A stretch of 49,361 bases of DNA, taken from assembly GCA_022792535.1 (NCBI GenBank), contig JAAWBG010000061.1, forward strand, positions 1 to 49,361. Direction: 5' to 3'. The translations under genes and the position numbers were made by a program. Each line of letters begins with the position of its first letter. Position 1 is the stretch's first letter. Under the pieces are notes generated by a model. The model was given only the letters and a program-made list of their open reading frames with translations. It was not told the origin of the DNA and did not search any database. This DNA comes from Lachnospiraceae bacterium (GTDB lineage: Bacteria > Bacillota > Clostridia > Lachnospirales > Lachnospiraceae). Below, one piece after another: positions 1-49,243 of this stretch.

Positions 1-141
1 AAGTATCTTTCCTATAAGAGAAAAATAATATGCGCACTCGCACAAGAGGTAAAATATTGCTTCGCAATTGTGCTGGGCGCGCAAAGTGTCCAGGCCCCTC
101 ATGAGTGAGGGGTTAGGGGAGATGAAGTGGGCCTGCCCACT
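1..141 (+). repeat. Family A palindromic repeat, copy 1 (left end cut by window edge)
   Basis: The first 23 bases are the right arm of a hairpin whose complete form is seen at 32620-32683. They are followed by a core (about 24-80) that is nearly identical to 32682-32740 and 34775-34832 and contains the nested stem ATTGC-ttc-GCAAT. A CCCCTCA-tgag-TGAGGGG hairpin (95-112) and an AGTGGG-cctg-CCCACT hairpin (126-141) follow. The tail hairpins differ from copy 3 by compensatory changes. The open frame at 68-325 runs through these palindromes and is not a credible gene. Confidence 0.85.
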
Positions 142-143
142 AT

Positions 144-185
144 TTTCTCTTATAGGAAATTCCTTTGGATTTCCTATAAGAGAAA
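144..185. repeat. TTATAGGA hairpin module
   Basis: A 17-bp perfect inverted repeat (144-160 with 169-185) encloses an 8-nt loop. The arm sequence CTCTTATAGGAAA is shared with the hairpin at 32620-32683 and is related to the arms at 49094-49157. It joins the family A module on its left to the GC-rich module D on its right. Confidence 0.8.
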
Positions 186-32619: not shown

Positions 32620-32790
32620 TTTTCTCTTATAGGAAAGACCTTGTCACGATAACGTGTGAAAGTATCTTTCCTATAAGAGAAAAATAATATGCGCACTCGC
32701 ACAAGAGGTAAAATATTGCTTCGCAATTGTGCTCGGCGCGTAAAGTGTCCAGGCCCCTCATGAGTGAGGGGCCTGGACACTTTGTTCTAG
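32620..32790. repeat. Family A palindromic repeat, copy 2 (complete)
   Basis: The unit starts with a 19-bp perfect inverted repeat (32620-32638 with 32665-32683, arm CTCTTATAGGAAAGA). It continues with the core ATGCGCACTCGCACAAGAGG and the nested stem around ATTGCttcGCAAT, and ends with a 19-bp palindrome at 32742-32783. From 32659 on it is almost identical to window positions 1-95. It fills the gap between two convergent genes. Confidence 0.88.
32742..32788. terminator. Terminator-like palindrome of repeat copy 2
   Basis: AAAGTGTCCAGGCCCCTCA (32742-32760) pairs perfectly with 32765-32783 across a tgag loop, followed by TTTGTTCT. It lies between the convergent flavodoxin and chemoreceptor genes and probably stops both. 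Copies 1 and 3 keep only the inner seven pairs of this stem. Confidence 0.7.
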
Positions 32791-32798
32791 GAAGAATA

Positions 32799-34448
32799 TC
32801 ACTGTTGTTTTAAATGGAACATACCGATCAGATTTTTTAGAAGTCCCGCTTGTGAATTTAGTTCCTGACTGGTAGCGGCGCTTTCTTCTGCAGTGGCAGA
32901 ATTTGTCTGAACTACATCTGAGATCTGAATGATACGATTCTGAATCTGGACAACTGATTCTGCCTGGGTACGGGCTGCATCGGCAATCCAGTTGGTGGCT
33001 TCTACTACCTGGCTGGTTCCCTCCACCACAGAGGCAAGCTGTACAGCTGTCTCATGGGCAATTTTTGTGCCATATGCTACAGAGCGGATGGAATGTTCGA
33101 TCAGGCTGTTTGTGGATTTGGAAGCTTCTGTACTTTGACCAGCTAATTCCTGAACTTCCTTGGCAACTACAGCGAATCCCTTTCCGGCCTCTCCGGCGCG
33201 GGCTGCTTCCACAGAGGAATTCAGGGCGAGAATGTTAGTCTGCTGGGCGATGTTTTCAATTGTTCGAATAATTTTTCCAATCTCATTGGAACTTTCGCTG
33301 ATCTCCTCCATAGCTTGAATCATTTCCTGCATCTTTCGGTTGCTTTCAGAAAGATGTTCGCTGACCTCTTCTACTTTCAGGCTGGCCTGTTCTGCCCGCT
33401 GGGCAGTCTGCTGTACCTGCAGGGAAATGGTCTGAATCGTTCCCTCTAATTCCTCTACAGCGCTGGACTGTTCTACAGCGCCTTGACTTAAGGCCTGAGC
33501 ACCGATGGACATTTGTTTGGAACCATTGGAGACATGATCTGAGCTTTCCACAATCTGAGACATCGTATCGTTTAGTTTATTGAGGATGTCGTCCAGAGAG
33601 GATTTGATTGAGGTGAAGTCACCTATGTAATCCTGAGTGGTGCCTGCAGTCAAATTGCCGTTGGAAATAGATTCCAATATGGTAGAAATTTCCCCGATGT
33701 ATCCTCGAAGCCGAAGGATTGTGTTTTCAAAAATGCTAGACAGCAGGCCGATCTCGTCGTTGGAATGAATATTTACGGTTAGGTTCTGTTCCTGGCCAAG
33801 TCCCAGCTTTCCTTCTTCCATGGTCTGAGCCAGGAGAGTAAGTTTGGAAAGAGGGCGCGATACCGAGCGGCTGATAAAAAGGGACATCAGCATGATACTT
33901 AAAATAATCATCACAGCGCCGGCGGCACAGGCCGCAAAAACGGTAAAATTAATCTGAGTGGTGGCTTCAGCCATAGAGATTCCAGCAAAGATCAGACCAT
34001 TGATCTGGCCCTTATCATCTGTTGTGGGAACATAAGAGCAGAGATGCTGCACACCCATGATTTCTGCTTTTCCCACATAGGATTTTCCCTGTACCAGAAT
34101 AGTGTCGGCCAGTTCTTCAGATAGTTTTGTGCCTACAAGACGTTCTCCGTTTTGCTGGATTGTGGTATAAGCCCGCTGATCACCCTGGAAGATTGTAAAT
34201 TCGCAGTTCATCTGCTCTTTTAGATCGTCCAGCAGCTGAGTCATATCTTCTGAATCATGAGTCTGCAGTTCATAAGACAACATATTGGTTCCGTTAATAC
34301 ACTGGGCTTTTAACATATTCATCACAAGACTGTAGAACATGAAAACACATAAAGCAAGGACAGCCACAATATTGACTACCAGCAGACATAGAGTCAGGCC
34401 GCCCACTTTACGTCCCAGATGGCGTGTTTTTTTGTTCTTTTGATTCAT
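32799..34448 (-). CDS. Methyl-accepting chemotaxis protein (transmembrane)
   Basis: A 549-residue chemoreceptor. TM1 lies at about residues 17-43, followed by an external single-Cache-like sensor of about 120 residues ([20 protein letters not shown]). TM2 is at about 165-190 ([16 protein letters not shown]), a HAMP domain at 190-245, and the signalling coiled coil runs to the end. The CheA/CheW-binding tip is [20 protein letters not shown] (near 400) followed by [19 protein letters not shown] 34448 follows TTGGAG at 8 nt; a GTG three codons upstream is less well placed. The ligand is unknown. It stands alone between repeat clusters. Confidence 0.94.
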
Positions 34449-34518
34449 TTTACTCACTCCAATACCATAAAATTAACTTATATTTTGGGATACCAAAGAT
34501 ACCCCGCATACCTATATT

Positions 34519-34572
34519 GATTTGGGTGTCAAAAGCGCCTTTGATGCGGCGCGCCCCTTTGACACTCTAATC
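34519..34572. mobile_element. Family B MITE-like element, short deletion derivative (B1)
   Basis: This 54-bp copy keeps both ends (GATTTGGGTGTCAAAAG on the left; CTTTGACACTCTAATC on the right) and one short hairpin, GCGCC-N8-GGCGC (34535-34552). It is flanked by perfect 7-bp direct repeats, CTATATT (34512-34518 and 34573-34579), as expected for a target-site duplication. The central long arm of the full element is missing. Confidence 0.78.
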
Positions 34573-34642
34573 CTATATTAAATAGAATTTTGACAAATTG
34601 CAAGAGTGATTTGCTTAAGTTTTCGTATTTTTTATCTTATAG

Positions 34643-34763
34643 GATTTGGGTGTCAAAAGCACCTTTGGTGCTACGCTCATCCCATATATTGTTATTGCAA
34701 ACGAGTTTGCGCATCAATATATGGGATAGAGCGGGTGCGGCGCACCCTTTTGACACCCGAATC
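34643..34763. mobile_element. Family B MITE-like cloverleaf element (B2)
   Basis: A 121-bp element with 17-bp terminal inverted repeats (one mismatch). The interior folds as arm 1 GCACC-ttt-GGTGC (34659-34671), a long arm CGCTC/GAGCG plus ATCCCATATATTG with its complement (34674-34733, inner stem GCAAAC-ga-GTTTGC), and arm 3 GGGTGC-ggc-GCACCC (34733-34747). It is flanked not by direct repeats but by inverted CTTATAG and CTATAAG, the arms of a family A hairpin. It therefore seems nested in, or to replace the loop of, such a hairpin. Open frames crossing it are not credible genes. Confidence 0.85.
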
Positions 34764-34772
34764 CTATAAGAT

Positions 34773-34905
34773 AAAAATAATATGCGCACTCGCACAAGAG
34801 GTAAAATATTGCTTCGCAATTGTGCTCGGCGCAGCAAACCGTCCAGGTCCCTCATGAGTGAGGGATTCAGGGAGTTGAAGCGGACCTGTCCGCTTTGTTC
34901 TATCT
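34773..34905. repeat. Family A palindromic repeat, copy 3
   Basis: The core (34775-34832) is nearly identical to those of copies 1 and 2. The tail has TCCCTCA-tgag-TGAGGGA (34848-34865) and AGCGGA-cctg-TCCGCT (34879-34894), which pair like the copy 1 tail but with compensated base changes. It directly follows B2, and CCTATAAGAT marks the join. The gap from the chemoreceptor gene to the MBL gene (34449-35079) is filled by B1, B2 and this copy. From 34906 on only AT-rich sequence is seen. Confidence 0.82.
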
Positions 34906-35079
34906 TTCTTTTGATAAAGCCAAAAGGTTTTGTTCCCTTGATTTTTCTTGCAAATAAACGGAGATTATACTAAAATAAACTTTATGACATATTACAAGGG
35001 AAGACAGAGAAATTGAGGACGGAAAAGGGCATGATATTTTGGATGATATTTGGATGATATAAGAAAGGAACAGAAAAAT

Positions 35080-35700
35080 ATGAAGATTGAGCAATACTGT
35101 GTAGGAGAAGTAGCCACCAACTGTTATTTTTTAATCAATGATGAGACGAAAGAAATGCTGGTGATTGATCCGGGAGATTCTGCAAAGATGCTGGCTGAGA
35201 AGATTCGACAGAAGAATTTGAACCCTCAGGCGGTTCTTCTGACCCATGGGCATTTTGACCATGCTATGGGGGCGGAAGAGTTGGCAGAGATATTTGGAAT
35301 TAAGATATATGCTCATGAGGCAGAAAAAAGTACTTTGGAACAGCCAGGCCGGAATGTTTCTTCCATGATCGGCCGGGGAGAGAGCTATCATGCAGATGTG
35401 TTTGTGACAGACAAAGAGGTATTGAAATTGGCAGGCATGGAGATTCAAGTGCTGCACACCCCTGGACATACAGAGGGAGGATGCTGTTACTATTTAGAAC
35501 AGGAGAAGGTTTTGTTCAGTGGAGATACTTTGTTCTGCCAATCTGTGGGAAGAACAGATTTTCCAGGGGGAAGTATGTCAAAGATTGTAAGGTCTATCAA
35601 AGAAAAATTATTAGTATTGCCAGATGATGTGAAGGTCTATCCAGGACATATGGATTTAACCACCATTGGAGGAGAACGTACAGGCAACCCATTTTTATAG
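35080..35700 (+). CDS. MBL-fold metallo-hydrolase (glyoxalase II-like)
   Basis: A 206-residue metallo-beta-lactamase fold hydrolase. The binuclear metal motif THGHFDHAMG is intact, followed by further ligands in LHTPGHTEGGCCYYL and LFSGDTLF, and a late histidine in YPGHMDLTT. The short length and ligands resemble the glyoxalase II-like proteins found next to hemZ and hisS in many Clostridia; the substrate is uncertain. ATG 35080 follows AAAGGA at 9 nt and avoids a 10-residue extension. It ends 10 bp before hemZ. Confidence 0.9.
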   Translation: MKIEQYCVGEVATNCYFLINDETKEMLVIDPGDSAKMLAEKIRQKNLNPQAVLLTHGHFDHAMGAEELAEIFGIKIYAHEAEKSTLEQPGRNVSSMIGRGESYHADVFVTDKEVLKLAGMEIQVLHTPGHTEGGCCYYLEQEKVLFSGDTLFCQSVGRTDFPGGSMSKIVRSIKEKLLVLPDDVKVYPGHMDLTTIGGERTGNPFL

Positions 35701-35710
35701 AGAGAAAAAG

Positions 35711-37357
35711 ATGATAACAGTTTGTCTAAATAAAAAAAATTTTGAATATGATATTCATTCTCTGGTCAAAGCTTTTTATGCCGGAGAGGAAGTCAAAGTG
35801 TTTGCGGACAGGGAGAGAATCTGCAGGCTGGAGCAGGAAGAGACGCCCTTGTTTCACCTGGAAGTTTTTTATCTGGAAATGACTGATTTGAAAATAGCTG
35901 ATCTGAAAACGACGGATCTGGAGACACCGGATTTGGAAATATCTGGAGAGCAGGAATTAAACTGGAAGGCGCCGGATGAGAGAGAATCAGATACAGGTCA
36001 GATTGAGATCTTTTTATGGCTTCCGCCTAAGGAACTGGAGAAGGGGAGGACTTTTGAGAATGGCGGGTATTCTGTGGGGGCTCAGACAAAGGTTTCCGTG
36101 GACTTTTCCGATCGAAAGGAGACCAAAAACCGGCTGAAACAGGGATTGTATCAGATGCTGTCAGTTTATACGGGGCAGAAACTTCCCTGGGGCACCCTTA
36201 CAGGCATCCGTCCAGTGAAGATTCCAATGGCCATGCTAGAGCAGAAGAAAACAGAGGAAGAGATCAAAACTTACATGGCAGATACTTATTTTGCCTCAGA
36301 TCAGAAAATAGAATTAAGTCTGAGAATCGCAAAACAGGAGATGGAGCTGCTGAGTCAGATTGACTATCGAAAAGGCTACAGCCTCTATGTGGGGATTCCT
36401 TTTTGCCCCAGTATCTGCTCTTACTGCTCTTTTTCCTCTTCGCCGGTGGAACTGTGGCAGGAAAAAATAGAGGATTACCTGACTGCGTTGGAACAGGAAA
36501 TTGATTTTACCGCAGAAGCCTGCAGACAGAAAAACCTTAACACGATTTATATCGGGGGAGGAACACCCACCGCATTATCTGCTCATCAATTAGATGGATT
36601 GCTTGATAAAATTAAAAATAAATTTAACTTTTCTCATCTATTGGAATATACTCTGGAGGCGGGAAGGCCGGACAGCATCACAAAAGAGAAGCTGAAAGTA
36701 TTGCAGGATCATGGAATTTCCCGGATCTCCATCAATCCCCAGACCATGAACCAGAAGACCCTGAATCTGATCGGGCGGAAGCATACTGCGGTGGAGACGG
36801 TGGAAAGTTTTTGGCTGGCAAGAGAGATGGGCTTTGACAATATCAATATGGATCTGATCTTAGGCCTGCCAGAGGAAAATCTGGAGGATGTCAAAAGAAC
36901 AATGGAACAGGTAAAAAAGTTATCCCCGGATAACCTGACGGTGCATTCCCTTGCCATTAAACGGGCGGCCAGATTGAAAATGTATGCAGAAGAATATGCA
37001 GGAATGCAGATGAAAAACAGTTGGGAAATGGTAGATCTGACGGCAGAATATGCAGAAAATATGGGAATGGAGCCTTATTATTTGTATCGTCAGAAAAATA
37101 TGGCAGGGAATTTTGAAAATGTAGGCTATGCCCGGCCGGGAAAGGCGGGACTTTACAATATTTTGATTATGGAGGAAAAACAGACCATCATCGCCTGCGG
37201 AGCCGGGGCCTCCACAAAATATGTGCTGGAACCAGATGAAAAAGGGAATACACAGGTAGAACGTACAGAAAACGTGAAAAATATTACCCAGTACATAGAG
37301 CGGGTGGAAGAGATGATCCAGCGCAAACGAGAAGGAATAGAGCAATATATCAAATAA
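35711..37357 (+). CDS. hemZ: Radical SAM coproporphyrinogen III dehydrogenase-like protein HemZ
   Basis: A 548-residue radical SAM enzyme of the HemN/HemZ group. The cluster motif is PFCPSICSYCSF (C232, C236, C239), followed by NTIYIGGGTPTAL. The N-terminal 200 residues are the HemZ-specific extension, and the C-terminal part includes PYYLYRQKNMAGNFENVGYA. It would oxidatively decarboxylate coproporphyrinogen or a related substrate anaerobically. Residues 58-77 contain a tandem pentapeptide, D-L-K/E repeated four times at 15-nt spacing, in an acidic insert that makes it longer than usual. ATG 35711 follows GAGAGAAAAAG. A TTG 15 codons upstream would overlap the MBL gene. Confidence 0.87.
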   Translation: MITVCLNKKNFEYDIHSLVKAFYAGEEVKVFADRERICRLEQEETPLFHLEVFYLEMTDLKIADLKTTDLETPDLEISGEQELNWKAPDERESDTGQIEIFLWLPPKELEKGRTFENGGYSVGAQTKVSVDFSDRKETKNRLKQGLYQMLSVYTGQKLPWGTLTGIRPVKIPMAMLEQKKTEEEIKTYMADTYFASDQKIELSLRIAKQEMELLSQIDYRKGYSLYVGIPFCPSICSYCSFSSSPVELWQEKIEDYLTALEQEIDFTAEACRQKNLNTIYIGGGTPTALSAHQLDGLLDKIKNKFNFSHLLEYTLEAGRPDSITKEKLKVLQDHGISRISINPQTMNQKTLNLIGRKHTAVETVESFWLAREMGFDNINMDLILGLPEENLEDVKRTMEQVKKLSPDNLTVHSLAIKRAARLKMYAEEYAGMQMKNSWEMVDLTAEYAENMGMEPYYLYRQKNMAGNFENVGYARPGKAGLYNILIMEEKQTIIACGAGASTKYVLEPDEKGNTQVERTENVKNITQYIERVEEMIQRKREGIEQYIK

Positions 37358-37415
37358 ATGTGATATAAAAATAAAATCAAGATTTAATAAAAGTGATAAA
37401 ATGGAGGAGAAAGCA

Positions 37416-38675
37416 ATGGCATTGGCGAAGAAGCCTGTAAATGGCATGAAAGACATTCTGCCGGAGGAAATGCAGATCCGGGATTATGTGATGAATGTGA
37501 TAAAAGAAACTTACCGCAGTTTTGGATTTACTCCTATTGAGACCCCTTGTATGGAGAATATTGGAAATCTCAGCAGCAAGCAGGGGGGAGAAAATGAAAA
37601 GCTGATTTTCAAGGTTTTAAAACGTGGAGAAAAGTTGAAACTGGAGACGGCCCAAAATGAGGAAGACGTAGTGGATTTTGGAATGCGCTATGATCTGACA
37701 GTGCCTTTGGCCCGGTTTTATTCCAACAATTCCAATAATCTGCCGTCACCCTTTAAGGCGCTGCAGATGGGAAATGTGTGGCGGGCAGACCGGCCTCAGC
37801 GTGGAAGATACCGTCAGTTTATGCAGTGTGATATTGATATTTTAGGAGAGCCCAGCAATCTGGCAGAGATTGAATTGATTCTTGCAACCACTACCACCTT
37901 GGGCAAGTTAGGCTTCAAAAATTTCCAGATTCGGATTAATGAGAGACGGATTTTGAAGGCGATGGCAAAATACAGTGGATTTTCAGAAGATTCATACGAC
38001 ACGGTTTTTATTATTCTGGATAAAATGGACAAGATCGGCTTGGAGGGAGTGGCTCAGGAACTGGAAAAAGGCGGATTTGAGAAATCATCCATTGAAAAAT
38101 ATCTAGGGCTGTTCCGTGATATGGAAGGAAAAGAGGATGTGGCAGAGGGAGTCTCCTATCTGGCGGAAAAATTAGGAGAATTTCTGGATGCAGATACAGC
38201 AAAGAATCTGCAGGAGATTGGGGCATGTGTCAATGACACCAAAGCGGCGGATTTTGATCTGGTATTTGATCCCACTTTGGTCCGGGGCATGTCTTATTAT
38301 ACAGGGACGATTTTTGAGATTGCCATGCCAGAATTTGGAGGAAGCTGCGGAGGGGGAGGCCGCTACGATAAGATGATCGGTAAGTTTACGGGAAATGACG
38401 TTCCAGCCTGCGGATTTTCCATCGGATTTGAGCGGATTATCCTGCTGCTTTTGGAGAGCGGATTCCAGATACCAGGACAGTCGGAAAAGATTGCATATCT
38501 GGTTGAGAAAAATTATCCAGAGGATAAACTGACCCAGGTGATTGCTTTGGCTCAGGAAGAGCGGAAAGCGGGAAAACAGATTCTGGTGGCCCGTATGAAT
38601 AAAAATAAAAAGTTCCAGAAGGAAAAATTGGCGGCAGAAGGGTATACGGAGTTTAAAGAATTTTTCAATAAATAG
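37416..38675 (+). CDS. hisS: Histidyl-tRNA synthetase
   Basis: A 419-residue class II synthetase. The N-terminus VNGMKDILPEEMQIRDYV and FGFTPIETPCMEN are typical. Motif 2 includes RYDLTVPLARF and FRADRPQRGRYRQF-type sequence (here VWRADRPQRGRYRQFMQCD). The histidine-specific segment is LVRGMSYYTGTIFEI, and motif 3 is ACGFSIGFERIILLL. A C-terminal anticodon domain is present. ATG 37416 follows GGAGGAG at 6 nt. It pairs with aspS, a common clostridial arrangement, but here a 121-bp cloverleaf element begins at the first base after its TAG stop. Confidence 0.96.
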   Translation: MALAKKPVNGMKDILPEEMQIRDYVMNVIKETYRSFGFTPIETPCMENIGNLSSKQGGENEKLIFKVLKRGEKLKLETAQNEEDVVDFGMRYDLTVPLARFYSNNSNNLPSPFKALQMGNVWRADRPQRGRYRQFMQCDIDILGEPSNLAEIELILATTTTLGKLGFKNFQIRINERRILKAMAKYSGFSEDSYDTVFIILDKMDKIGLEGVAQELEKGGFEKSSIEKYLGLFRDMEGKEDVAEGVSYLAEKLGEFLDADTAKNLQEIGACVNDTKAADFDLVFDPTLVRGMSYYTGTIFEIAMPEFGGSCGGGGRYDKMIGKFTGNDVPACGFSIGFERIILLLLESGFQIPGQSEKIAYLVEKNYPEDKLTQVIALAQEERKAGKQILVARMNKNKKFQKEKLAAEGYTEFKEFFNK

Positions 38676-38796
38676 GATTAGGGTGTCAAAAGCGCCTTTG
38701 GCGCTGCACTCATACCATATATTGCTATTGCAAGCTTGCTTGCACATCAATATATGGTATAGAGTGGGTGCGTCGCACCCTTTTGACACCCTAATC
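38676..38796. mobile_element. Family B MITE-like cloverleaf element between hisS and aspS (B3)
   Basis: A 121-bp element with perfect 17-bp inverted ends (38676-38692 with 38780-38796). It is flanked by 7-bp direct repeats TAAATAG (38669-38675 and 38797-38803). The left repeat contains the hisS stop codon, so insertion left hisS intact. Inside are arm 1 GCGCC-ttt-GGCGC, a long arm (CACTC/GAGTG with a bulged A, then ATACCATATATTG with its complement, inner GCAAGC-tt-GCTTGC) and arm 3 GGGTGC-gtc-GCACCC. It is 105/121 identical to B2 by eye, with changes compensated in stems. Confidence 0.9.
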
Positions 38797-38839
38797 TAAA
38801 TAGAAAAATAGAAGCATAAAAGGAATCGGAGGAAGAAAC

Positions 38840-40654
38840 ATGGCAGAATCAATGCGCGGGCTTCACAGAAGCCACAGATGTACAGAAGTATCCAGTCAAA
38901 ATATTGGAGAACAGGTAACGGTTATGGGATGGGTGCAGAAGAGAAGGAATTTAGGAAGCTTGATCTTTATTGACCTGAGAGATCGTTCTGGTCTCCTTCA
39001 GATTGTCTTTGATGAACCGAAGGTGGGAAAGGAAGGATTTGCCAAAGCAGGGACTCTGCGCAGCGAATTTGTGGTGGCAGTGACAGGAACCGTGGAAAAG
39101 AGAGCGGCTGCAGTCAATAAGAATCTGAAAACAGGAGAGATCGAGGTGATTGCCACAGATCTTCGAATTTTGTCAGAGTCTGAGACGCCTCCTTTTCCTA
39201 TTGAAGAGAATTCTCAGACCAAAGAGGATCTTCGGCTCCGCTATCGCTATTTAGATTTGAGAAGACCAGATCTTCAAAGAAATCTGATGATGAAGAGCAA
39301 GGTGTCCATGCTGCTGCGCAGGTTTATGGAGCAGGAGGGATTTTTAGAGATCGAAACCCCGATTTTGACAAAATCTACGCCAGAGGGAGCAAGAGATTAT
39401 CTGGTGCCCAGCCGGGTGCATCCAGGCAGTTTCTATGCGCTGCCTCAATCCCCTCAGTTATTTAAACAGCTTTTAATGTGCTCTGGCTACGATCGGTATT
39501 TTCAGATTGCAAGGTGTTTCCGGGACGAGGACCTGCGGGCGGACCGTCAGCCGGAATTTACTCAGGCAGACATGGAGCTGTCCTTTGTGGATGTGGATGA
39601 TGTGATTGAAGTCAACGAACGTCTCCTGCAATATGTATTTAAGGAAGCCATCGGGTTAGACATTACTCTGCCCATCCAGCGGATGCCCTGGCAGGAAGCT
39701 ATGGACCGCTATGGAAGCGATAAACCGGACACTCGTTTTGCCATGGAATTGGTGAATGTATCGGAAGCAGTGGCAGACTGTGGATTCGGTGTGTTTACGG
39801 GAGCTTTGGAACAAGGCGGTTCTGTGCGGGGAATCAATGTGAAAGGTCAGGGTTCAATGCCCCGGAAAAAGATTGATAAATTAGTAGAATTTGCCAAAGG
39901 CTATGGGGCCAAAGGGTTGGCTTATCTGGCGGTAAATGAAGATGGCACTTATAAATCTTCTTTTGCCAAATTTATGGAAGAGGACACGCTGAAAAAGCTG
40001 GTGGAAAAGATGGATGGACAGCCAGGAGATTTACTGCTGTTTGCCGCTGACAAAAACACGGTAGTCTGGGATGTGCTGGGAGCCCTCCGGCTGGAACTGG
40101 GGAAAGAATTAGAGCTGATTGACAAGGATCAGTATAATTTCCTGTGGATCACAGAATTTCCATTGTTGGAGTGGTCTGAGGAGGAAAATCGTTTTATGGC
40201 AAAACATCATCCATTTACCATGCCTATGGAGGAAGACTGGGAGAACATTGATTCTGATCCGGGAGCTGTGCGGGCCAAAGCCTATGATATTGTGCTGAAC
40301 GGAACGGAATTAGGCGGCGGGTCTGTCCGTATTCATCAAAATGATATTCAGGAAAAAATGCTGGAAGTATTGGGCTTTACCAAAGAACAGGCTTATGAAC
40401 AGTTTGGATTCTTACTGAATGCCTTCCAATACGGGGTGCCGCCTCATGCAGGACTGGCCTATGGTTTAGATCGGATTGTGATGCATATGATGCACTGCGA
40501 GAGTATTCGGGACGTGATTGCTTTTCCAAAAGTAAAGGATGCTTCCTGTCTGATGACAGAGGCTCCCGGCAGAGTGGATGAGAAACAATTAGAAGAGCTG
40601 GCCTTATCTGTGACAGTGGAGGAAACTCTTGAAAATACGCCGATGCAACCGTAA
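38840..40654 (+). CDS. aspS: Aspartyl-tRNA synthetase
   Basis: A 604-residue bacterial-type AspRS. It has an N-terminal OB-fold anticodon domain (VTVMGWVQKRRNLGSLIFID) and the catalytic domain with motif 2 (RCFRDEDLRADRQPEFTQAD). The bacterial GAD insertion domain lies between about residues 295 and 420. Motif 3 is GLAYGLDRIVMHMM, followed by IRDVIAFPK. Length and the GAD insert are as expected. CGGAGG precedes the ATG, 36 nt downstream of the B3 element, which must therefore be in its mRNA leader or intercistronic region. No T-box is visible. Confidence 0.96.
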   Translation: MAESMRGLHRSHRCTEVSSQNIGEQVTVMGWVQKRRNLGSLIFIDLRDRSGLLQIVFDEPKVGKEGFAKAGTLRSEFVVAVTGTVEKRAAAVNKNLKTGEIEVIATDLRILSESETPPFPIEENSQTKEDLRLRYRYLDLRRPDLQRNLMMKSKVSMLLRRFMEQEGFLEIETPILTKSTPEGARDYLVPSRVHPGSFYALPQSPQLFKQLLMCSGYDRYFQIARCFRDEDLRADRQPEFTQADMELSFVDVDDVIEVNERLLQYVFKEAIGLDITLPIQRMPWQEAMDRYGSDKPDTRFAMELVNVSEAVADCGFGVFTGALEQGGSVRGINVKGQGSMPRKKIDKLVEFAKGYGAKGLAYLAVNEDGTYKSSFAKFMEEDTLKKLVEKMDGQPGDLLLFAADKNTVVWDVLGALRLELGKELELIDKDQYNFLWITEFPLLEWSEEENRFMAKHHPFTMPMEEDWENIDSDPGAVRAKAYDIVLNGTELGGGSVRIHQNDIQEKMLEVLGFTKEQAYEQFGFLLNAFQYGVPPHAGLAYGLDRIVMHMMHCESIRDVIAFPKVKDASCLMTEAPGRVDEKQLEELALSVTVEETLENTPMQP

Positions 40655-44696: not shown

Positions 44697-44713
44697 GATT
44701 CGGGTGTCAAAAG
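44697..44713 (+). repeat. Solo left end of a family B element (B4)
   Basis: GATTCGGGTGTCAAAAG is exactly the reverse complement of the right end of B2. No matching right end follows within the gap, so this is a relic. The rest of the gap (44714-44943) is AT-rich and holds the promoter of the phosphorelay operon. Confidence 0.7.
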
Positions 44714-44809
44714 GAGGCTTTTAAATTTTTTATTGTCAATTTGCACAATTATGTAGAAATTATGGTCCTGCCTTGCTTATGACAGAGAGGAAACTCAGGA
44801 ACAAATCGG

Positions 44810-49058: not shown

Positions 49059-49097
49059 AAAAGCCTTACCTGTGAAAAATCTCAGGTAAGGCTTTTT
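49059..49097 (+). terminator. Terminator after the hybrid kinase
   Basis: AAAAGCCTTACCTG (49059-49072) pairs perfectly with CAGGTAAGGCTTTT (49083-49096) around a 10-nt loop and runs into a T tract. Confidence 0.92.
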
Positions 49098-49157
49098 ATT
49101 CTATAGGAAAGACCCTGTCACATTGAAGCGTGAAAGCATCTTTCCTATAGAATAAAA
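49094..49157. repeat. TATAGGAAAGA hairpin module
   Basis: A 19-bp perfect inverted repeat (49094-49112 with 49139-49157) has an inner GTCAC/GTGA-type pairing. The inner arm TATAGGAAAGA equals that at 32628-32638, while the outer arm bases differ on both sides together, keeping complementarity. It starts within the T tract of the kinase terminator. Confidence 0.8.
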
Positions 49158-49189
49158 TATAGATGCCACGCAAATGCAAGGAAAATATA

Positions 49190-49243
49190 TCGCACTGCGG
49201 CGGAGAGGAAATGAACCGCGGGAGCGGTCCGCCGCAGGCGGAG
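49190..49243. repeat. GC-rich repeat module D, copy 2
   Basis: 52 of 54 positions match 195-248. The inner hairpin has one more pair (ACCGC/GCGGT) than copy 1. As in copy 1, it lies right of a hairpin with a TATAGGAAA-type arm and left of another strong hairpin. Confidence 0.8.

What the first reader, a model, noticed from the sequence alone, without database searches (positions are those of the whole stretch)
34643..38796. Family B: MITE-like elements whose two full copies show covariation that preserves a cloverleaf
The two 121-bp copies (34643-34763 and 38676-38796) fold identically: a 17-bp closing stem, a short ttt-loop hairpin, a long arm with an inner hairpin and a bulged A, and a GGGTGC/GCACCC hairpin. 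By eye they differ at 16 positions. Ten of these form five pairs: A-T to G-C in arm 1, G-C to A-T and C-G to A-T in the long arm, A-T to G-C in the inner arm, and T-G to A-T in the closing stem. The remaining six are in unpaired positions, and no difference breaks a pair. Drift of that kind points to selection on, or copying through, the folded form. Bacterial MITEs normally conserve their ends, not an internal secondary structure. Whether RNA, single-stranded DNA or a cruciform matters is unknown.
Basis: partly seen in the sequence, partly recalled or inferred. Interest (0 to 1): 0.82.

Follow-up and report, generated by a model that had tools for sequence, protein, structure and literature searches.

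The report
Mini-transposon with mirrored double ends
The two cloverleaf repeats are copies of a tiny non-coding jumping element of a gut bacterium whose paired changes come mainly from its left and right ends staying mirror images of each other, as in the full-size jumping genes that share its ends, rather than from a working RNA cloverleaf.

Summary
The 121-bp copies at 34643 and 38676 differ at 16 sites, ten of which form five kept pairs, and both fold to the same cloverleaf (z about -11). They belong to a family of which I aligned 100 copies (43 own genome, 40 G013, 17 others). It is a MITE: 49 of 96 copies with readable flanks have exact 7-bp target duplications, and copy 2's 17-bp ends are identical to those of an 1,863-bp insertion sequence of a sister species with an IS1182-like transposase and 7-bp duplications. 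Those ISs have a second inverted repeat inside the first; the MITE's long arm lies at the equivalent place. Covariation is real but sits mainly in the left-right mirrored parts (37 double changes against 12.7 expected, 34 ending Watson-Crick); the two local hairpins have 6 against 3.0, 2 ending Watson-Crick, and one pair that switches. G-T and A-C intermediates are equally common (86, 94), so nothing points to RNA. Changes private to one copy are mostly uncompensated. Best reading: bipartite mirrored ends kept alike in mobile lineages. Known kind; the co-varying second repeat is new to me. Interest moderate.

The parts
34643..34763 (+). copy 1 of the 121-bp element (subfamily c1)
   Evidence: 98% identical to five other own-genome copies
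34643..34659 (+). left 17-bp terminal inverted repeat (GATTNGGGTGTCAAAAG)
   Evidence: same as the TIR of the G026 IS apart from position 5
34658..34672 (+). arm 1, local hairpin in the left spacer
   Evidence: one of six pairs has two-sided changes
34675..34691 (+). left sub-terminal inverted repeat (5' side of long arm)
34696..34711 (+). inner hairpin at the centre of the element
34715..34732 (+). right sub-terminal inverted repeat (3' side of long arm, with bulged A)
34733..34747 (+). arm 3, local hairpin in the right spacer
   Evidence: none of six pairs has two-sided changes in the 66 rows
34747..34763 (+). right 17-bp terminal inverted repeat
34628..34642 (.). left flank of copy 1; with 34764-34778 it forms a 14-bp inverted repeat (arms of a hairpin of another repeat family), no direct duplication
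38676..38796 (+). copy 2 of the 121-bp element (subfamily c2), between a histidyl-tRNA synthetase-like ORF (37401-38675) and an aspartyl-tRNA synthetase-like ORF (38840-40654); these gene names are recalled from the sequences, not searched
38669..38675 (.). target site duplication TAAATAG, left copy (holds the stop codon TAG of the upstream ORF)
38797..38803 (.). target site duplication TAAATAG, right copy
34519..34572 (+). 54-bp short element with the same kind of terminal repeats, lacking the long arm; flanked by CTATATT duplications at 34512-34518 and 34573-34579

Best explanation
It is a non-autonomous miniature element (MITE) moved in trans by an IS1182-like DDE transposase. Each end has two parts: a 17-bp terminal repeat and, about 15-20 bp further in, a second inverted repeat (the long arm plus inner hairpin), with a spacer between them that can itself fold (arm 1 on the left, arm 3 on the right). 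Shown: the copy number, the 7-bp duplications, identity of the 17-bp ends with those of an IS, the two-part layout in ISs of the genus, and covariation concentrated in the mirrored parts. Inferred: that this kind of transposase moves it and contacts both repeats at both ends, so that a lineage which changes one end spreads best with the other end changed too. The left-right pairs then look like base-pair compensation although a folded strand need not exist. After insertion single copies drift and their stems decay.
For: 49 of 96 copies with flanks have exact 7-bp direct repeats at zero shift (k=6: 1, k=8: 7; flanks of different copies: 148 of 9,120 pairings). Three identical 1,863-bp ISs in G026 with perfect TIR GATTAGGGTGTCAAAAG, a 538-aa transposase and duplications TGCATAA, CTATTTT, CTACTGG. 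Of 8 ISs whose two ends were placed by the end motif, 7 have an exact 7-bp duplication; a ninth (L346) was placed by a search that itself asked for one. The transposases fit best to NF033551 IS1182 (126 and 133 bits, below the 270-bit cut-off), with DUF772 and DDE_Tnp_1_6. In 4 of the 7 IS sequences compared a second inverted repeat of 24-27 bp (0-1 mismatch) with core ACCTTGAAAA lies inside the TIR; in 3 it is imperfect; some spacers fold locally. One G027 MITE (L279) carries GTACCTTG second repeats as in such an IS. Mirrored pairs: 37 double changes in 38 pairs, null 12.7 sd 3.2, 0 of 1,000 as high, 34 end Watson-Crick; local hairpins: 6 in 12 pairs, null 3.0, 75 of 1,000, 2 end Watson-Crick. 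The long arm is the slowest mirrored part (3.3 changes per site; inner hairpin 3.4, TIR 5.0, loops 7.1).
Against: No IS with this end was found in the own genome or in G013 (transposase search: 0 matches in either; DUF772: 30 of 40 listed loci scanned, 7 of 14 in G013, none flanked by the TIR on both sides), so the matching transposase is not identified, and the second repeat of the cloverleaf class differs in sequence from those of the known ISs. Pair 19/27 in arm 1 does switch A-T to G-C (19 GC of 92 distinct rows; 13 two-sided cells against 3.3 in shuffles), which mirrored ends do not explain; it is mostly one subfamily. Terminal branches also hold double changes (36, null 14.3), so compensation is not confined to old subfamily splits. 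Mismatched TIR variants have spread, so pressure for identical ends is not strict.
Confidence: 0.66

Rival explanations
1. Structure-dependent transposition: the IS1182-like transposase recognises the extruded cloverleaf (cruciform or single strand), so base pairing itself is selected in the mobile lineage.
For: Left-right pairs covary strongly; pair 19/27 of arm 1 switches both sides; IS1272, put in the IS1182 family, is reported to target and remove stem-loops (PMC5678879, PMC4923244); spacer hairpins also occur in some ISs; 9 of 48 target sites against 10 of 93 control windows fold with z below -2.
Against: Local hairpins covary at one pair only; mismatched closing stems have spread; overall the 48 reconstructed target sites are not more foldable than nearby DNA (median z 0.11 against -0.18, p 0.69); 7-bp duplications, unlike IS1272.
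Confidence: 0.15
2. Mutational coupling: fold-back template switching or recombination between arms copies one arm onto the other, giving compensated changes without selection.
For: The effect is strand-symmetric overall (G-T 86, A-C 94); mosaic copies L059 and L060 suggest recombination between subfamilies; some single copies have double TIR changes (for example L063, L285, L317, L320, L327).
Against: Arms 1 and 3, with 3-base loops and so good substrates for template switching, have fewer double changes per pair (6 in 12 pairs against 37 in 38); of the 38 c1 and c2 copies of the own genome only the mosaic L059 has a private double change, beside 15 private single ones.
Confidence: 0.13
3. 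A structured RNA under selection in its host sites (for example an mRNA stability or attenuation element).
For: Very stable fold on both strands; copy 2 lies between two ORFs on the same strand; in the inner hairpin alone A-C exceeds G-T on terminal branches (18 against 4), which would be G-U on the minus strand.
Against: Over all stems no excess of G-T over A-C or the reverse; private stem changes are mostly unpaired (58 single: GT 18, AC 22, other 18; 10 in doubles, 2 of these from the mosaic L059; three subfamilies, 69 of 100 copies); no Rfam match at gathering scores.
Confidence: 0.05

Closest known systems
MITEs assigned to IS1182-family elements (ISMac2 of Methanosarcina acetivorans; table row seen as a passage of PMC3852290)
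   Same: Short, non-coding, multicopy, ends related to an IS of this family; rows list 160 bp, 14 copies, repeat sizes 26 and 4, and 169 bp, 7 copies, 25 and 0.
   Different: Here the duplications are 7 bp, the ends are bipartite and the second repeat covaries; the partner is only IS1182-like (below NCBIfam's cut-off).
IS1272 (IS1182 family; outline, abstract and passages of PMC5678879, passages of PMC4923244)
   Same: Same broad transposase family by name; palindromic ends; link with hairpins.
   Different: IS1272 is reported to replace stem-loops without duplications; here 49 of 96 copies have 7-bp duplications and targets are not specially foldable overall. Protein similarity to IS1272 was not tested.
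bcr1 of the Bacillus cereus group (recalled; its own paper is not held; rows for Bcr1 seen in PMC2267715)
   Same: Dispersed repeat of about 150-170 bp listed with a predicted conserved structure; mobile traits recalled.
   Different: Different hosts; no sequence comparison made; its duplication length was not checked.
REP/REPIN elements with RAYT transposases (recalled)
   Same: Palindromic intergenic repeats moved in trans (recalled).
   Different: RAYTs are Y1 enzymes without target duplications (recalled); here there are 7-bp duplications.

Membership tests
MITE (general) | short, multicopy, no transposase gene, terminal inverted repeats | tested here: met
   121 bp, 100 copies aligned, 17-bp TIR
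MITE (general) | target site duplication of fixed length | tested here: met
   7 bp in 49 of 96; sharp peak at 7
MITE of the G026/G014 IS group | same terminal repeat and duplication length as an autonomous IS | tested here: met
MITE of the G026/G014 IS group | interior derived from that IS | tested here: not met
   second repeat differs in sequence; a different G027 element (L279) does carry IS-type second repeats
MITE of the G026/G014 IS group | mobilised in trans by that transposase | not testable with these tools
   needs a mobility assay; no match to that transposase in the own assembly
IS1182 family (of the transposase) | NCBIfam NF033551 curated score 270 | tested here: not met
   126.2 and 133.3 bits over nearly the full model; therefore called IS1182-like only
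IS1272-type stem-loop replacement | no duplication, target hairpin removed | tested here: not met
   49 of 96 with 7-bp duplications; no overall folding bias of targets; copy 1 itself has no duplication and inverted flanks
REPIN/RAYT or IS200/IS605 derivative | no target duplication (recalled) | tested here: not met
structured RNA family | match to an Rfam model | tested here: not met
   0 matches at gathering scores in the window
structured RNA family | G-U tolerated more than A-C in stems | tested here: not met
   86 against 94, p 0.60; inner hairpin alone 4 against 18 on terminal branches

The most novel reading that the evidence does not exclude
The element is moved as a folded cloverleaf: an IS1182-like transposase recognises a four-way DNA structure built from terminal repeat, spacer hairpins and second repeat, so pairing rather than sequence is what the mobile lineage must keep, a donor-side counterpart of the structure-dependent targeting claimed for IS1272.
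Probability: 0.13. Interest if true: 0.75.

Novelty: new variant of a known kind. Interest (0 to 1): 0.37.

Why it matters
It shows that base-pair covariation in a dispersed repeat can come from mirrored transposon ends and need not mean a functional RNA or a folded intermediate; scoring mirrored arms and local hairpins apart is a simple control for such claims. It also gives, within one genus, several MITE classes and ISs with one terminal repeat and different, internally matched second repeats, which would let one ask how a transposase and both ends of its elements change together.

Tried and rejected
ISL3 (PF01610: 0 of 3 genomes) and IS256 (PF00872: 7 loci, no end motif within 3 mismatches) as movers; DDE_Tnp_1 loci (20 of 62 listed matches fetched and scanned, none with the ends on both sides); DUF772 loci (30 of 40 listed). 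A 1,319-bp pair of ends in G013 holds a 341-codon ORF that does not look like a transposase by eye. Solitary ends in G013, G028 and G000 that I read were short, one-ended or other MITE classes, not ISs. Plasmid and phage collections: no match to copy 1. Rfam: none at gathering scores. Target folding: no overall bias, though 9 of 48 sites against 10 of 93 controls have z below -2. Inverted flanks as a general insertion mode: 7 of 96 copies with 6 bp or more when one base of shift is allowed, 2 of these with a 7-bp duplication; at zero shift 3 observed against a control mean of 2.4, maximum 8, so not general. Papers: the listings showed no paper on an IS1182 element with a second, co-varying inverted repeat and none on a Lachnospiraceae MITE by title; two of these searches found 0 papers, and only open-licence papers are held. 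Rows dropped: degenerate or partial relatives L093, L095, L096, L034, and the G017 copy (L015), whose sequence is the same as that of the G028 copy, were left out of the 100; 3 of 100 were dropped from the tree for gaps (97 copies, 89 distinct used); 66 gap-free rows were used. Lists were cut by the tools, so counts from them are lower bounds.
Full report
WHAT IS THERE. Copies 34643-34763 and 38676-38796 fold to the same cloverleaf and differ at 16 positions, of which ten make five kept pairs.

FAMILY. A BLAST search of the own genome with copy 1 lists 75 matches, both strands of the near-palindromic copies counted, from about 40 copies. 19 of 61 genomes match copy 2. A covariance model built from 22 copies finds matches in 13 of 29 genomes of the genus. 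I aligned 100 copies: 43 from the own genome, 40 from G013, 17 from ten others. The own genome has two subfamilies, one around each window copy, plus mosaics (L059, L060).

MOBILITY. 49 of 96 copies with flanks have an exact 7-bp direct repeat directly at the ends; at other lengths 0 to 7 copies do (3, 0, 2, 1 for 3-6 bp; 7 for 8 bp; 0 for 9-11 bp), and flanks of different copies match in 148 of 9,120 pairings. The 7-bp site is A/T-rich, often CTATAAG (8 of 49) or CTTATAG (4 of 49). Copy 2 has TAAATAG on both sides. In 27 of 28 relatives both neighbouring ORFs' matches were listed on one contig; in 22 of the 27 the stretch between the two matches is 88 bp or less, in 2 it is 138 and 168, in 3 above 300. 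In the window the intergenic gap is 164 bp, 128 of which are element plus one duplication. No listed match lies there in a relative (that list was cut). 18 of 100 copies have the motif of another repeat's hairpin in their flanks; an unoccupied form of that hairpin is at 32620-32683. Copy 1 has no direct duplication; its flanks are 14 bp inverted.

THE MOVER. Searching genomes of the genus for the terminal repeat gave three pairs 1,863 bp apart in G026 and one 1,913 bp apart in G014. These are ISs with 538- and 541-aa transposases, DUF772 plus DDE_Tnp_1_6, best NCBIfam model IS1182 at 126-133 bits, below its cut-off of 270. 9 of 29 genomes have matches to the G026 protein. Of eight ISs whose two ends were placed by the end motif (three are the identical G026 copies), seven have exact 7-bp duplications and one (L353) has not; a ninth, L346, was placed by a search that required a duplication and so is no independent evidence. 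Terminal repeats are GATTAGGGTGTCAAAAG or GATGYTGGGGTCAAAAG-like. The own genome and G013 have no match to this transposase, so the present copies may be orphans, or the IS is missing from a 150-contig assembly (92.7% complete), or the partner is more distant.

ANATOMY. Each of seven IS sequences has, inside the terminal repeat, a spacer of unequal length at the two ends and then a second inverted repeat. Four are near-perfect over 24-27 bp (G026 with one mismatch, G014, G025, G021) and three, closely related to each other, imperfect (G018 a and b, G014 b). The core ACCTTGAAAA is shared (ACATTGAAAA at one end of the three); the rest differs from IS to IS but largely matches between the two ends of one IS. 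Local spacer hairpins appear in the folds of the G025 left end and the G018/G014 b CATAGA end. The 121-bp element has the same plan in miniature: TIR, spacer with arm 1, second repeat (long arm, inner hairpin), spacer with arm 3, TIR. Other elements with the same TIR occur in the genus: 26 listed, from 36 to 321 bp, with quite different interiors, 13 of 26 with an exact 7-bp duplication; L279 keeps the second repeats of an IS of this kind.

WHERE THE COVARIATION LIES. On 66 gap-free distinct copies: TIR 7 of 15 pairs have two-sided changes (3.2 in shuffles), long arm plus inner hairpin 9 of 23 (3.3), arm 1 plus arm 3 only 1 of 12 (1.1). Against my reading, arms 1 and 3 do exceed all 500 shuffles on cells with two-sided changes (13 against 3.3) and on the covariation score (0.074 against 0.050); all 13 cells are pair 19/27, mostly one subfamily. 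On a tree of 89 distinct copies, mirrored pairs had 37 double changes (null 12.7, sd 3.2; 0 of 1,000 simulations as high) and 34 ended Watson-Crick; local hairpins had 6 (null 3.0; 75 of 1,000), 2 ending Watson-Crick. By branch: internal 7 (null 1.3), terminal 36 (null 14.3; partners slid by 1-4 columns 11-22). The null places changes by branch totals and is cruder than R-scape; recombination among copies is ignored. Single changes that leave Watson-Crick pairs were A-C 94, G-T 86, other mismatch 78 (p 0.60 for A-C against G-T); the inner hairpin alone is uneven (A-C 18, G-T 4 on terminal branches). Changes private to one copy inside three subfamilies (69 of 100 copies) were 58 single and 10 in doubles, 2 of the 10 from the mosaic L059. 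Loops change most (7.1 per site), TIR 5.0, arm 1 4.5, inner hairpin 3.4, long arm 3.3, arm 3 3.1; so the local hairpins are conserved in sequence while hardly covarying.

READING. Mirrored ends of a transposon must both suit one transposase. When a lineage shifts, both ends shift, and in a 121-bp element the two ends are close enough to be drawn as one stem. That accounts for the closing stem and long arm, the overall strand symmetry and the decay of single copies. It does not account for pair 19/27. Against a strict need for pairing: 11 copies with A.C and 17 with G.T at pair 7/115, of which 6 and 11 have exact duplications.

LITERATURE. IS1272 (IS1182 family) is reported to replace stem-loops without duplications: PMC5678879 (outline, abstract and passages) and PMC4923244 (passages). 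An IS1182-family IS of Paracoccus, ISPse1, has a table row with 16/16 and 4, which I read as repeat and duplication lengths (PMC3281130, passage). MITEs assigned to ISMac2 (IS1182) are tabled in PMC3852290 (passage). Stem-loop repeat families, Bcr1 among them, are tabled in PMC2267715 (passages). In what I saw there was no account of a co-varying second repeat (listings).

LIMITS. The partner of this exact class is not identified; no expression or mobility data; the transposase's contact with the second repeat is inferred; the tree is built from the elements themselves.

Noticed in passing
window 34628-34642 and 34764-34778: Copy 1 has no direct duplication but a 14-bp inverted repeat of flanks, like the two arms of a hairpin family otherwise intact at 32620-32683 and 49094-49157. 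It may be a deletion between two copies inserted in opposite arms, or a hairpin replacement as claimed for IS1272.
   Followed up: partly
window 1-148, 32620-32807, 34753-34901, 49094-49243: Another dispersed repeat family with a TTTCCTATAAG-type hairpin and a further part downstream; its hairpin motif lies in the flanks of 18 of 100 copies.
   Followed up: partly
window 44698-44750: Solitary end GATTCGGGTGTCAAAAG followed by a stretch like the TTGGCAATTTGCACAA second repeat of a different MITE class (seen in G021 and G005 elements).
   Followed up: no
L331 and L334, position 101 on: 36-bp elements that are just two terminal repeats back to back, each with an exact 7-bp duplication.
   Followed up: no
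L292 (G006) 1501-1621: Distant relative with a quite different long arm (GCCTATTG/CAATAGGC) that is still mirrored.
   Followed up: partly
L145-L150 (viral contigs): Six viral contigs hold one exact terminal repeat each; not inspected, may be chance or insertions.
   Followed up: no
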